A DNA stretch of 64,000 bases, taken from Opitutia bacterium (GTDB lineage Bacteria; Verrucomicrobiota; Verrucomicrobiia; Opitutales; Seribacteraceae). The stretch spans positions 19,836 to 83,835 of the forward strand of contig PAZC01000024.1 of NCBI GenBank assembly GCA_002716045.1. Reading direction: 5' to 3'. Both the position numbers and the translations under genes were made by a program. The notes beneath the pieces were generated by a model. It saw only the letters and a program-made list of their open reading frames with translations. It was not told the DNA's origin and did not search any database. Shown piece by piece: positions 13,183 to 62,942 of the stretch (its first letter is position 1; every line of letters begins with the position of its first letter).

Positions 13183-13503
13183 ATGAAAACCGCCATTACC
13201 AAAACCCAACTCATTCTGACTTTTGCCACCCTCGTCCTCGTCGGGTTTTTCAGCACAGGAGCCTTCCGGGAAAAATCGGAGGCAACCTTGCCCGTTATCA
13301 AAGCCGGAGTCGATGATCGCGGCAATCCGATCTGCATCAACAAATCCCAAGTCTATATGTTTACAAAGGATGATTCTGGCCGTCGCATACTCTTTCATTT
13401 TCATGACCCTGGCGCTCGTGACGGCTTTTCCATTGTTAAGAAAGTCTTTGCAACCAACAAGGCGATGGATGAATACTGGGAGGTTTTGGTAAAGCAATGG
13501 TAA
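13183..13503 (+). CDS. Hypothetical secreted/membrane-anchored small protein
   Basis: ORF with N-terminal TM/signal 'TQLILTFATLVLVGFFSTGA'; stop overlaps the start of the next gene (ATGGTAA). Confidence 0.5.
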   Translation: MKTAITKTQLILTFATLVLVGFFSTGAFREKSEATLPVIKAGVDDRGNPICINKSQVYMFTKDDSGRRILFHFHDPGARDGFSIVKKVFATNKAMDEYWEVLVKQW

Positions 13504-14171
13504 CTATTCCTTCACATGCCCGTACTGTTTCTCAGCGAGCAGTTATCTCCTCTCTTTTGGCTCTCCTCGGGGTCTTCTTGGCATCTTGCGAGAAACCTCT
13601 GAAGAGAAAGCTCATGATGGCCCTCGAACAAAACGCGACCGAGGAGCGAGGCGGTGTCCTTTTTGACGTAGCCAAAGACAAGCCTCACGATGGCTACGTC
13701 AAGGAAAGGGCGGATAATGGTCGCGTAACCTTCCTTTACGCTGTCCGCGGAGGAAAACGGGAAGGTATTTCCCTTGGTTGGCATGACAACGGGTCACTCA
13801 GCTTGCAGGGAAATTTCAAGGATGGCAAGGAGGACGGCTTGTGGACCACTTGGTACGAAAACGGAAACAAGAGATGGGAGGGCATGCGCCGGAGCGGTAA
13901 CAAGGATGGACCCTGGACCATGTGGCGTGAAGACGGCCAAAAGAAATCCGAAGGCTTTTATGAAAACAACCTTAAGCAAGGACGTGAAATTGTTTGGCAC
14001 CAGAACGGGCGCATTTGGCAAACCCGCTTTTTTCAAAAAGGAGCCAAGGATGGTCGCTGGATTTATTGGGACAAACAAGGCCGCATCGTCCGTGAAGAAG
14101 TATTTCGTGGCAATGAATTGATCGATAGCAAGAAGCTGCCCGACTTCTGGTTGCAGGACAAAGATTCCTGA
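13497..14171 (+). CDS. YwqK/MORN-repeat lipoprotein
   Basis: Repeats 'GISLGWHDNGSLSLQGNFKDGKEDGLWTTWYENGNKRWEGMRRSGNKDGPWTMWREDGQKKSEGFYENN'; lipobox-like 'GVFLASCEK'. Confidence 0.8.
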   Translation: MVTIPSHARTVSQRAVISSLLALLGVFLASCEKPLKRKLMMALEQNATEERGGVLFDVAKDKPHDGYVKERADNGRVTFLYAVRGGKREGISLGWHDNGSLSLQGNFKDGKEDGLWTTWYENGNKRWEGMRRSGNKDGPWTMWREDGQKKSEGFYENNLKQGREIVWHQNGRIWQTRFFQKGAKDGRWIYWDKQGRIVREEVFRGNELIDSKKLPDFWLQDKDS

Positions 14172-16168: not shown

Positions 16169-16939
16169 CTAGGGAGCAGGATTTTCAACCGCATTCCCGC
16201 CAGCGTAAGTTTTACGCGAACTTTCGGAGCCATCTTCGTTGTATTCGATCCAAAGCCCTTCTTTGCTTCCTTCCTTGAAGGAACCTTCCGAACTCTTCTG
16301 GCCGTTCTTGTACCAATAGGTCCATCGCCCGTCGAGATGGTTGTCCTTCCATTGTCCTTCTTCTGACTTTTGCCCGTTATCGTACCATTCGATCCAAGAG
16401 CCTTCTTCGGTTCCACCCTTGTATTCCCCTTCCTGCCACTTTTGACCGTTCGGATGCCAATAAGTCCATAAACCTTCCATGTTGCCGTCCTTGTACCTTC
16501 CTTCGCCGATTTTTTGTCCACTGTCATTCCATTCGGTCCAGACTCCCTCGCTTTCGTTGTTTTTCCATTCCCCTTCGCTTAGTTTCTGTCCCGCTTCATT
16601 CCATTTCGTCCAAGGGCCATTTTTTTGGCCGTCCTTGTATTGAACCAAGTGGACTAGGTTGCCACTGGGGCTCAGTTCTTTGGCCCATCCCGTGAAGGGT
16701 TTGTCCTCGTTGGGAGCGAAAGAACCATTGCCGTCCTCTTCTTGCAAACGGCCTAGAAAGACTGCCTTGCTGAGCCTTTCCTCAAGGGGATTAGCTGGTT
16801 CGCCTTGTTTTGTTTCAGGCTGTGGAGGCGTTTGATTCGTTTCCGGTTGTGGCAACGTTTTTTCGGATGTTTCCTTTCCGGAGTCATCTCCACACCCAGC
16901 GAGCGCCACGAATAAAAGTATCGGGATAATCGTTTTCAT
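16169..16939 (-). CDS. YwqK/MORN-repeat lipoprotein
   Basis: Lipobox 'LLFVALAGCGDD'; about six tandem units such as 'GQKWQEGEYKGGTEEGSWIEWYDNGQKSEEGQWKDNHLDGRWTYWYKNGQKSSEG'. Confidence 0.8.
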   Translation of the reverse strand: MKTIIPILLFVALAGCGDDSGKETSEKTLPQPETNQTPPQPETKQGEPANPLEERLSKAVFLGRLQEEDGNGSFAPNEDKPFTGWAKELSPSGNLVHLVQYKDGQKNGPWTKWNEAGQKLSEGEWKNNESEGVWTEWNDSGQKIGEGRYKDGNMEGLWTYWHPNGQKWQEGEYKGGTEEGSWIEWYDNGQKSEEGQWKDNHLDGRWTYWYKNGQKSSEGSFKEGSKEGLWIEYNEDGSESSRKTYAGGNAVENPAP

Positions 16940-17089: not shown

Positions 17090-17302
17090 ATGTCTATTTT
17101 TCGCTATCTTCAGCTAGCCCCTTTTTTCATCGGAAATTGGGTGTGGGCTCAAAATGCGACTTCCTCCAGCAATTCCTTCGGTGACCGGGGTTTCTGGGAA
17201 GACGCACTGGATAATCCAGGCCATTATTCCTACGTATTGATCATTTTCATAGTCCTTGGTTATTTTCTCTGGAAGGTGCAGGGCTTGGGCGAGGACGATT
17301 GA
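17090..17302 (+). CDS. Small single-TM membrane protein of unknown function
   Basis: 'MSIFRYLQLAPFFIGNWVWAQ' signal-like segment plus 'YSYVLIIFIVLGYFLWKVQG' TM; 25 nt upstream of the TIR gene. Confidence 0.5.
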   Translation: MSIFRYLQLAPFFIGNWVWAQNATSSSNSFGDRGFWEDALDNPGHYSYVLIIFIVLGYFLWKVQGLGEDD

Positions 17303-17327
17303 CGAGAATGCCCTTCTCGTTTTATTG

Positions 17328-19601
17328 ATGGGTTTGGCGGTGAACGTTTACGTATACAAGAACGACAAGAAGTCGGGGCCTTTTTCTCTGGATGAATTGC
17401 AAGCCAGCCTGGACGAAGGGGCATTCAGTCCCATAGATTCGGCTTGGTTTGAGGGTTGCGAGGAATGGACCACGGTTTCTCATGTGCCGGGAATATTGAT
17501 TTCGGAGGAGAAGAGGCGGCAGCACTTGGTTCCTCCTTTTGAGGCTTATTCCGGAGACAAGCCATTTGTTTTCGTGAGTTATTCCCATGCCGACGGCGAA
17601 CTCGTGTTCAGGGAAATTCGCCGCCTCCATGAAGCTGGATATCGTATTTGGTATGACGAGGGAATCGATCCAGGGCAGGATTGGCCCGAACATATTGCCA
17701 AGGCAGTCATCGATTGTGACCTTTTCCTTATGTTTACTTCTCCGCGATCGGCTGCCTCTGAGAATTGTCGCAACGAAGTCAATCTCGCCCTTAATCGGAA
17801 AAAGAAATTTCTAGCCATTTATCTTGAGCATACCGAGCTTCCGCCTGGTCTCGAGTTACGCATGGGTGATCTGCAGGCCATCCTGAAGTTTCGAATGCCT
17901 GATGCCACTTATCGAAAGAAGGTATACATGGGACTTGAAGCCATGTTGGGAGAAGGTGGTCGTGATCTTCCCGAAGGTGATGATCCGGTGGCGGAGGCGC
18001 TGAAGATCGAGGTAGTCGCGGATTACCTCATGGCTCCGGTGGACGCCGACTTGGCATCCGAATATCTGCCGAAAGAGGAGGCGAGCTCATCCAAGTCTGC
18101 GAAGAAAGGGGTGGGAATCTCTTTTGTGTGGGCGCTTGCTGCGGTTTGCATTGCCTTGGCGGTATATTTTTACACCCAGCAAGATCGGGGGGAAAACAAT
18201 TCAGCCAAACAAGACCCCAAGCCGCAACCAGTCGAGATGGCTTTGCCATTGGATGCCAAGTCGAAGCAGGAACTTGAGAAGGAACAACTGGATCGGGAGG
18301 AACTGGAAAGTTTACGCGAAATGGTGGCCAAGCAAAAACAGGATCAGGAGATCCAGTCCCAACTGAATGACGCCGTCGACCTTCAGGTCTATCTGGAATC
18401 GCTCAAGCGAGCCGTCGAACTGGAGGCTTACCAAGGAGCTGCTTTGCTGGCTGCTCAAAAAGTACTGACCCACGATTACGTCTTCGACAATGACCAAGGC
18501 GAACTGGATCGACGTCTTCTGTTTGAGGGGCCTGGCGAGGTCTGGAACAGAGTTAAGTTGGGTGAAGTAGGTGTTTATCCTGAAAATTCTCAGGGAGAGT
18601 ACGAGGCTTTGTCCTCGATAGTTAGCTTTTCAGGCATTCGTGACGTTTGGCGCTACAATCTGACCGAATACACTCCAGTAAAGGTGGGGAACACCTTCAC
18701 CGGGCAGGCCAAGTACGAGACAAAGCGAGAACACTTGCGCCCCATTTTTTCCTTTGGCCAGATCCGGGCGCTTGTCGCAGATGAGAAGTTTGATTCAGAG
18801 GACAAATCTTCTGAAAAAGTGGAAAAGCTCACCCAACATGGGAATTTCCTTATCCAAGGTCGTCGTCAAGTCCGACAAGTAACTTCCACCCACTGGGCGG
18901 GAAACATCAAGGGACAGGTTCTCGAAAAGCCCGAACTCACCCTGGAGTCTCATTTCGTGCAGGATCAGATCGAGCAATATCTGGACGGTGAAAATAGCCG
19001 GGTTCGGGCTCCTTTGCTCGACCTCTTGGACACACTCCTTGTGGACCAGAGCGTGGATGTCTTGTTCAAGGCATTCATTCACGACAAGCTATGTAAGATT
19101 CTTTTGCCTCGCGGCGATCAATGGGGTGTCCCTTTTTCACCATGGTTGATTGAGGACCATAATCGCCTGCAGGAAATTCTCAGGACACCGCTCAAGAGCA
19201 CTGACTGGATGAATCCGGAACCGTTTCAGGAAGTGAAGGAAGATCTTGCTGTCTACTATCGGGATTTAAATACACGAAGCTATTCCGCTGAAGCCAATGT
19301 GTACGTAAACTTCCTGCGAGACATCTCGGCTGCCACCCATGCTTTTGCAGGCCACGTTGACGAGCTGAACCAACCTCGCTTCATCGACGAGGATAATCCC
19401 CCCTCTTTTCTTTGGTGCCTTGTCTTGGAGCAAAGCGAAGTCGAATTCCAACAGTTCAGTGGATCTAACGGAATTCCATTCAGTCCCTTGATCTCGCTCA
19501 GGGGCGATTTGGAGGATGCTTACCAGAAGGTCCTGTCTGAGTTGGGCGAAGGCGCGGCCGAAATGGAGGACCTTTTGCCTTTTCCATATCCGGGGCAATA
19601 G
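17328..19601 (+). CDS. GYF_2-TIR-transmembrane protein with large C-terminal domain of unknown function
   Basis: N-terminal GYF_2-like 'NVYVYKNDKKSGPFSLDELQASLDEGAFSPIDSAWFEGCEEWTTVSHV'; TIR 'KPFVFVSYSHADGELVFREIRRLHEAGYRIWYDEGIDPGQDWPEHIAKAVIDCDLFLMFTSPRSAASENCRNEVNLAL'; TM 'GISFVWALAAVCIALAVYFYT'. Confidence 0.85.
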   Translation: MGLAVNVYVYKNDKKSGPFSLDELQASLDEGAFSPIDSAWFEGCEEWTTVSHVPGILISEEKRRQHLVPPFEAYSGDKPFVFVSYSHADGELVFREIRRLHEAGYRIWYDEGIDPGQDWPEHIAKAVIDCDLFLMFTSPRSAASENCRNEVNLALNRKKKFLAIYLEHTELPPGLELRMGDLQAILKFRMPDATYRKKVYMGLEAMLGEGGRDLPEGDDPVAEALKIEVVADYLMAPVDADLASEYLPKEEASSSKSAKKGVGISFVWALAAVCIALAVYFYTQQDRGENNSAKQDPKPQPVEMALPLDAKSKQELEKEQLDREELESLREMVAKQKQDQEIQSQLNDAVDLQVYLESLKRAVELEAYQGAALLAAQKVLTHDYVFDNDQGELDRRLLFEGPGEVWNRVKLGEVGVYPENSQGEYEALSSIVSFSGIRDVWRYNLTEYTPVKVGNTFTGQAKYETKREHLRPIFSFGQIRALVADEKFDSEDKSSEKVEKLTQHGNFLIQGRRQVRQVTSTHWAGNIKGQVLEKPELTLESHFVQDQIEQYLDGENSRVRAPLLDLLDTLLVDQSVDVLFKAFIHDKLCKILLPRGDQWGVPFSPWLIEDHNRLQEILRTPLKSTDWMNPEPFQEVKEDLAVYYRDLNTRSYSAEANVYVNFLRDISAATHAFAGHVDELNQPRFIDEDNPPSFLWCLVLEQSEVEFQQFSGSNGIPFSPLISLRGDLEDAYQKVLSELGEGAAEMEDLLPFPYPGQ

Positions 19602-61843: not shown

Positions 61844-62398
61844 TCAGGCCCCTTCCCCGGAAAGGTTTTTTGGGAAATCGTACTCCACCATTTCTCCGCC
61901 GCCTTCCTCGATCTCGTGCCAATTAGCAATCGGCAAGCGGATCACCGCGACGCCACAGGTCGGTATGTTTGGAATATCGCTCCCGGTCAAGAAATTCACC
62001 AAAATGGTGGTGCTTGGGTTGTGGGCAGCCAGTGCGGCTGAGTTCGCGGCGGAGGGGAATTCACTGACAATGCCAAGCAAGGTAGACGCGGATGCTTCGT
62101 AAGCGGCAGGTAAGGGAAGAAGCTTGTCCTCGGGAAAATCCCAAGCGTTTGCAATCAGTTTCGCCGTGGCCCAGGCACGGGCTGCCGGACTAGAGGCAAA
62201 ATGATCCGGAACCGAATATTTGGACGCGAGTCTATGCCCCATCTCGGGAGCATCTCGCAATCCCCTTTTGTTTAGGGGACGATCGAAATCACTCGATTCC
62301 AAGTTCTTCCAACTTGATTTTGCATGGCGAACAAGAATCAGCAACTTGCCGCTTTGCGGTTGCGGATTTACTGAATCCTCTTTTTCATTCACTGACAT
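61844..62398 (-). CDS. SixA-type histidine phosphatase family protein
   Basis: 'LLILVRHAKSSWKNLESSDFDRPLNKRGLRDAPEMGHRL', 'HNPSTTILVNFLTG'. Confidence 0.88.
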   Translation of the reverse strand: MSVNEKEDSVNPQPQSGKLLILVRHAKSSWKNLESSDFDRPLNKRGLRDAPEMGHRLASKYSVPDHFASSPAARAWATAKLIANAWDFPEDKLLPLPAAYEASASTLLGIVSEFPSAANSAALAAHNPSTTILVNFLTGSDIPNIPTCGVAVIRLPIANWHEIEEGGGEMVEYDFPKNLSGEGA

Positions 62399-62942
62399 GA
62401 AAACGGTATTGTGGGTCTTTTTGGTAAGCGCGATGTTTTTTTTCGGGTGCGGTGATGACACCACTCTCCCGGAAAGTGAAATGGGGACATCCGCCACAGA
62501 GGAAAAGAAATCAGATAGAACATCGGGATCCTCGCCCCGTTTTCAACCCAATGCCCCGGAAGAGCCGGAGGAGCCCGAAGAACCTCAATTGCCCCCCGGA
62601 GAGCCGGCTGAAGATCTGGCGGAACGCGATGGAACTTATTTTTTAGCAGATCGGGAGGACCCCTTTACGGGGGCAGTTGAAAAACGCCACCCGAATGGTA
62701 GGTTGGCGCTCTGGGCAAGTTATTCCGAAGGCAAGCCAGATGGAGTTCAGCACTTCTGGGATGAAAAAGGGAACAAGGTTCAGGAGTCGAATTATACGAA
62801 GGGCTCTTTGGATGGCATCCAGACCTTTTGGTGGCCAAATGGCATCAAGAAAGAAGAGCGCATCTGGCAGGCAGGCGAATACCGTGAGTTGCGCAGATGG
62901 AGTCGGGACGGCGAATTGGTCGAGGAGAACAGGAACTTCTGA
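62397..62942 (+). CDS. YwqK/MORN-repeat lipoprotein
   Basis: Lipobox-like 'VSAMFFFGCGDD'; 'NGRLALWASYSEGKPDGVQHFWDEKGNKVQESNYTKGSLDGIQTFWWPNGIKKEERIW'. Confidence 0.75.
   Translation: MKTVLWVFLVSAMFFFGCGDDTTLPESEMGTSATEEKKSDRTSGSSPRFQPNAPEEPEEPEEPQLPPGEPAEDLAERDGTYFLADREDPFTGAVEKRHPNGRLALWASYSEGKPDGVQHFWDEKGNKVQESNYTKGSLDGIQTFWWPNGIKKEERIWQAGEYRELRRWSRDGELVEENRNF

What the first reader, a model, noticed from the sequence alone, without database searches (positions are those of the whole stretch)
17090..19601. Membrane-anchored GYF_2-TIR protein with an unassigned C-terminal domain and a small membrane partner
The 757-aa protein (from ATG 17328) has a GYF_2-like N-terminus, then a TIR domain with 'SPRSAASENCRNEVNLAL'. 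The Glu in NEV sits where many bacterial TIR NADases have their catalytic Glu. A single TM helix and coiled-coil follow, then about 400 aa I cannot assign. A 70-aa single-TM protein ends 25 nt upstream, suggesting a two-gene unit. Bacterial TIR proteins are often NADase effectors in antiphage systems (Thoeris, CBASS, Pycsar, short pArgo). Calling this a defence or signalling module is inference: no Thoeris ThsA, cyclase or Argonaute gene is nearby, and the neighbours are a rhamnulokinase/MORN region and a permease.
Basis: partly seen in the sequence, partly recalled or inferred. Interest (0 to 1): 0.75.

Follow-up and report, generated by a model that had tools for sequence, protein, structure and literature searches.

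The report
Membrane TIR protein with borrowed outer domain
A marine Verrucomicrobia (Opitutia) genome encodes a membrane-anchored immune-type (TIR) protein whose unexplained C-terminal half was copied from a part of a separate GTPase-based putative conflict system in the same genome, which suggests that the TIR protein is an unlinked branch of that system.

Summary
Observation confirmed: GYF_2 (aa 8-55), TIR_2 (81-185), one TM helix (about 259-284), and a 70-aa signal-peptide/TM ORF ending 25 nt upstream. The 'unassigned' C-terminus (aa ~325-754) is homologous (47% identity, 429 bits) to the end of a 1,227-aa single-TM protein on another contig of the same genome. That protein is the third gene of a conserved operon: DO-GTPase2, GAP1-N2, third protein, GYF/RDD, MotA/ExbB. 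Of 28 family proteins in fetched loci, 21 lie directly downstream of GAP1-N2 and four stand alone. In a tree the two TIR-fused copies are one clade, sister to this genome's own third protein: a domain copy within the genus. GYF-TIR is a module of this bacterial family with swapped C-termini (FGE-sulfatase, Ig, laminin-G, cyclase, LRR-like), mostly beyond a TM helix. Best reading: a receptor-like TIR protein with cytoplasmic output and an exchangeable extracytoplasmic domain, here tied to a GTPase system predicted to act in biological conflict. The Glu is invariant, but the Trp of WxxxE is Asn, so NADase activity, especially cyclic-ADPR production, is uncertain. Defence is not shown. No fold could be assigned.

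The parts
17090..17302 (+). 70-aa membrane protein: N-terminal signal-peptide-like stretch, short acidic segment, C-terminal TM helix, charged tail ending in DD
   Evidence: homologue at the same place in the sister genome (L031/L066), nothing convincing in the 42 other genomes of the family
17328..19601 (+). GYF_2-TIR-TM-C-terminal-domain protein, 757 aa
   Evidence: orthologue 55% identical in the sister genome
17349..17492 (+). GYF_2 domain (aa 8-55)
   Evidence: PF14237 E 2.5e-9; best Foldseek hit of the low-confidence model is the GltJ GYF domain 7z3c
17568..17882 (+). TIR_2 domain (aa 81-185); S84, D110 and E150 present, N146 in place of the Trp of WxxxE
   Evidence: PF13676 E 8.7e-21; alignments; residue roles from PMC11374754
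18102..18179 (+). Single TM helix (aa 259-284), K-rich on its N-side (N-in by the positive-inside rule)
   Evidence: Hydropathy scan
18300..19598 (+). C-terminal domain (aa ~325-757) shared with the third protein of DO-GTPase2/GAP1-N2 operons
   Evidence: phmmer 429 bits, E 2.4e-128, to G000:C38; profile and phylum search; tree

Best explanation
The 757-aa protein is a receptor-like membrane TIR protein. A cytoplasmic GYF_2 adaptor and TIR output module sits on the inner side of the membrane; a single TM helix connects it to a 430-aa extracytoplasmic domain. That outer domain is a copy of the C-terminal, also post-TM, domain of the third protein of a DO-GTPase2/GAP1-N2/MotA-ExbB gene cluster elsewhere in the genome. 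I infer that the TIR protein joins or watches that GTPase-controlled envelope complex through the shared domain, by pairing with it or by binding the same partner, so that activation clusters the TIR domains and switches on their output. That output is probably NAD+ cleavage to a linear product, otherwise TIR-TIR signalling. Shown: domains, homology, duplication history, TM pattern, conservation. Inferred: topology, physical coupling, enzymatic activity, antiviral role.
For: C-terminal homology to the third protein: 47%, 429 bits. That protein lies in an operon with PF19993 (DO-GTPase2), PF20013 (GAP1-N2), RDD+GYF_2 and MotA_ExbB proteins. In fetched loci from across the phylum the domain's proteins lie directly downstream of GAP1-N2 in 21 cases. 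By my count of the tables, all 30 of 135 relatives with the domain are GAP1-N2-positive, and none of the 93 GAP1-N2-negative genomes has it. The TIR copies form one clade (100/99), sister to this genome's own third protein (95/94). The domain follows a K/R-flanked single TM in both proteins. GYF-TIR relatives carry typical outer-surface domains at the same place: FGE-sulfatase, surface Ig, laminin G. E150 and D110 are invariant and S84 nearly so. [quoted passage not shown]
Against: The TIR gene is not linked to the GTPase operon (contigs C28 and C38) and sits among core genes. The fusion is known in only two genomes, both MAGs; the own genome shows 6% contamination, and contig assignment cannot be checked. 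The shared domain (430 aa) is far larger than the small EADs of the paper. Trp of WxxxE is Asn. No structure: both AlphaFold models were poor (pLDDT 48 and 51). Four relatives of the third protein stand without GAP1-N2 beside them, so the domain is not exclusive to the operon.
Confidence: 0.55

Rival explanations
1. A stand-alone envelope sensor: the C-terminal domain was copied only for its binding property and the TIR protein works without the GTPase system, like the FGE, Ig and LRR-like versions in relatives.
For: GYF-TIR proteins occur in many genomes without GAP1-N2 (G002, G005, G008, G010 and others); different outer domains sit on the same chassis; the gene is unlinked to the operon.
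Against: This outer domain, unlike the others, belongs to one operon type, and both genomes with the fusion also carry DO-GTPase2 and GAP1-N2.
Confidence: 0.25
2. A non-catalytic TIR scaffold in housekeeping envelope signalling, unrelated to defence.
For: Core-gene neighbourhood conserved in the sister genome; Trp of WxxxE replaced by Asn in all 11 members, a residue that the cited work finds weaker in non-cADPR or non-catalytic TIRs (PMC11374754); the MotA/ExbB partner suggests an energised envelope machine.
Against: E150, D110 and S84 are kept across 11 proteins with very different C-termini, which suggests catalysis under selection; patchy presence and swapped domains are unlike housekeeping.
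Confidence: 0.25
3. A decoy or bait: the copied domain mimics the third protein so that a phage or competitor factor that attacks the GTPase system triggers the TIR output (integrated-decoy logic).
For: A domain copied from a resident system and fused to a signalling protein is the pattern of integrated decoys in plant NLRs (own knowledge); the copy is kept over its full length.
Against: No inhibitor of GAP1-N2 systems is known to me; fast evolution was not tested.
Confidence: 0.1

Closest known systems
GAP1-N2-type DO-GTPase systems (Kaur, Burroughs, Iyer, Aravind 2020, PMC7159879)
   Same: The resident operon has DO-GTPase2 and GAP1-N2, a GYF protein with TM segments, and membrane components, as described for such systems; a core component and a likely effector share a domain
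   Different: The text I read names no TIR among GAP1-N2 effectors and no third protein of this family; here the shared domain is large, follows a TM helix, and the TIR gene is unlinked
Effector-associated domains (EADs) in the same paper
   Different: EADs are small and were reported for MoxR-vWA and GAP1-N1 systems; this domain is about 430 aa and probably extracytoplasmic
Bacterial TIR NADases (AbTir, TcpC, Cat1, Thoeris ThsB)
   Same: TIR fold with Ser, Asp and catalytic-position Glu
   Different: NxxxE instead of WxxxE; membrane-anchored; no ThsA, CRISPR or SAVED partner nearby
Toll-like and IL-1 receptors
   Same: Single TM, cytoplasmic TIR, variable outer domain (in relatives: Ig, lectin-fold FGE, LRR-like)
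   Different: Reverse order of domains, unrelated outer domain here, extra GYF; analogy only

Membership tests
TIR NADase | TIR fold by profile | tested here: met
   PF13676 75.1 bits, cut-off 28
TIR NADase | Catalytic-position Glu in helix C | tested here: met
   E150 aligned to the Glu of WTEYEL in 7uxr and WCWDEL in Cat1; invariant in 11 relatives
TIR NADase | Full WxxxE motif (Trp tied to cADPR production) | tested here: not met
   N146 in all GYF-TIR proteins; role of Trp from PMC11374754
TIR NADase | NAD+ cleavage | not testable with these tools
   Needs an enzyme assay
Thoeris | ThsA gene next to the TIR gene | tested here: not met
   Neighbours are rhamnulokinase, MORN-like protein, permease, ValRS; ThsB_TIR 13.5 bits, cut-off 21.2; padloc ThsB hits only weak
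GAP1-N2/DO-GTPase system | Core pair GAP1-N2 and DO-GTPase2 in the genome | tested here: met
   G000:C38
GAP1-N2/DO-GTPase system | Gene lies in the operon | tested here: not met
   Contig C28 against C38; no GAP1-N2 at the sister locus either
GAP1-N2/DO-GTPase system | Shares a domain with an operon component | tested here: met
EAD-type adaptor | Small non-enzymatic domain | tested here: not met
   About 430 aa; enzymatic nature unknown
Toll-like receptor architecture | LRR ectodomain | tested here: not met
   None in this protein; only LRR-like by eye in relatives such as L039, no Pfam LRR hit

The most novel reading that the evidence does not exclude
A bacterial family of 'inside-out Toll receptors': one GYF-TIR-TM chassis on which outer domains are exchanged, with the outer domain here captured from a resident GTPase-driven envelope system, so that the TIR acts as a second, unlinked output of that system.
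Probability: 0.3. Interest if true: 0.85.

Novelty: new variant of a known kind. Interest (0 to 1): 0.62.

Why it matters
It gives an address to a domain that had none and links TIR signalling to GAP1-N2/DO-GTPase systems, for which I found predictions but no experiments in the papers searched. It also shows TIR modules with exchangeable, probably extracytoplasmic domains in bacteria, an architecture that parallels animal TIR receptors. Both claims are directly testable: interaction of the shared domain, NAD+ cleavage, dependence on the operon.

Tried and rejected
AlphaFold of GYF-TIR with three sequences: pLDDT 51; only the GYF part matched. Profile search of the C-terminal domain against PDB and member scan against Pfam: nothing significant. 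Genome-contig scan with the single protein: nothing; alignments A3 and A2 were too diverse to search with. Deeper alignments were available from whole-genome loci but were not sent to the structure tool, whose rule names other sources. Thoeris, CBASS, Pycsar and pAgo membership rejected. Accessory-island idea not supported: the sister genome has the same flanking genes; in the next genus the orthologous permease has no TIR gene beside it. Literature: no paper held both GYF_2 and TIR_2, and one paper only held both GYF domain and TIR domain.

Full report
Observation. Pfam gives GYF_2 at aa 8-55 and TIR_2 at 81-185, both above their curated cut-offs. A single hydrophobic stretch at aa 259-284 is preceded by lysines. 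The 70-aa ORF at 17090-17302 ends 25 nt upstream. A homologue sits at the same place in the sister genome (score 127; 2,000 shuffles had mean 24, maximum 52), and nothing convincing was found in the other 42 genomes of the family. The start codon is not settled, because homologues begin where GTG 17340 lies.

The C-terminal half. A search of 135 related genomes found the C-terminal region (aa ~325-754) at the end of a 1,227-aa protein on contig C38 of the same genome, 47% identical, 429 bits. Its operon holds, in order, a DO-GTPase2 protein (PF19993), a GAP1-N2 protein (PF20013), this third protein, an RDD+GYF_2 protein, a MotA/ExbB protein, two proteins without Pfam hits and, further on, a surface Ig/TSP3 protein. 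The DO-GTPase2 match of the own copy is just under the cut-off on the cut fragment (25.4 against 27 bits) and over it for the whole frame (28.1); the sister genome's copy is over it (29.2).

How tight is the link? With a profile of 12 C-terminal sequences, 19 of 390 genomes drawn from the phylum carry the domain. Of 28 family proteins in the fetched loci, 21 lie directly downstream of a GAP1-N2 gene; two are cut by contig ends; one is the sister genome's TIR fusion; four (L093, L097, L099, L100) stand without GAP1-N2 beside them. Among the 135 relatives, my count from the tables is 30 genomes with the domain, all of them among the 42 GAP1-N2-positive genomes.

History. In a maximum-likelihood tree the two TIR-fused copies are one clade (support 100/99) and join this genome's own third protein (95/94), inside a larger clade of the family's third proteins. 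The simplest reading is a copy of the third gene's 3' end onto a GYF-TIR gene within this genus. The sister genome (Opitutia MAG SP241, PBLJ01000048) has the fusion, a second GYF-TIR gene without the outer domain in tandem, and DO-GTPase2 and GAP1-N2 genes that run into a contig end, so its third gene could not be seen.

The chassis. GYF-TIR N-termini 47-82% identical to this one occur in about 17 of 44 genomes of the family (my count) and hardly at all in the phylum sample outside it. They carry different C-termini: FGE-sulfatase (L041, L043), FGE plus surface Ig (L042), FGE plus laminin-G (L058), a class III nucleotidyl cyclase without a TM (L037), a second GYF plus an LRR-like end (L039, no Pfam LRR hit), or this third-protein domain. 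In the membrane forms the variable part follows a K/R-flanked TM. This pattern says: constant inside, exchangeable outside. The topology is an inference from charge and domain type.

Catalysis. E150 aligns with the Glu of WTEYEL in 7uxr and of WCWDEL in Cat1 and never varies in 11 relatives. S84 and D110 occupy the places of AbTir S140 and D167, which are needed for activity (PMC11374754; my mapping by motif). The Trp four residues before the Glu is Asn in all members. In that paper the Trp is needed in AbTir but not in TcpC and is linked to cyclic ADPR products. NADase activity is therefore possible, cyclic products less likely.

What it works like. Kaur et al. [quoted passage not shown] They place GAP1-N2 systems at the membrane and mention GYF proteins in planctomycetes. 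They list TIR domains for other systems; I found none listed for GAP1-N2. The present protein follows that rule, with a large post-TM domain in place of a small EAD. I therefore think it most likely works as a membrane TIR branch of the GTPase system. Defence is an inference twice over: the operon's role is itself a prediction, and its MotA/ExbB-like gene leaves room for an envelope function without any link to phages.

Limits. Both genomes with the fusion are MAGs; the own one is 94% complete with 6% contamination. The structure models are too poor to use. Supplementary tables of Kaur et al. could not be read, so a mention of this third protein there is not excluded.

Noticed in passing
L030:6187-18999 (G000:C38): Operon DO-GTPase2, GAP1-N2, 1,227-aa third protein, RDD+GYF_2, MotA/ExbB and two short proteins with an N-terminal hydrophobic stretch in relatives; the same gene set recurs in other families of the phylum (L064, L091, L092, L102). 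A GTPase switch tied to a proton-channel-like gene is unexplained.
   Followed up: partly
L037:595-2157, L107:839-2401, L115:1168-2568: GYF-TIR (L115: TIR) fused to a class III adenylate/guanylate cyclase-like domain: two nucleotide-signal modules in one chain, no TM
   Followed up: partly
L066:5764-6963: Tandem second GYF-TIR gene (399 aa) beside the fusion gene, with a TM but a short unassigned C-terminus
   Followed up: no
L044:4216-5730, L056:8957-10405, L057:14123-15778: A second TIR family with FGE-like ends lies beside the same neighbours (a 650-aa protein and a gene that looks like lysyl-tRNA synthetase) in several genomes of the family
   Followed up: no
L093:8319-11450, L097:6876-8879: Third-protein relatives without a GAP1-N2 gene nearby; that of L097 begins with a TM helix and lacks the N-terminal part
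   Followed up: no
L050:565-2718 (G000:C49): A second GAP1-N2 protein in the own genome without DO-GTPase2 or third protein beside it
   Followed up: no
window 13497-14171, 16169-16939, 62220-62942: Three related proteins with MORN-variant-like repeats (G.W..W...G pattern), two of them flanking the rhamnulokinase gene
   Followed up: no
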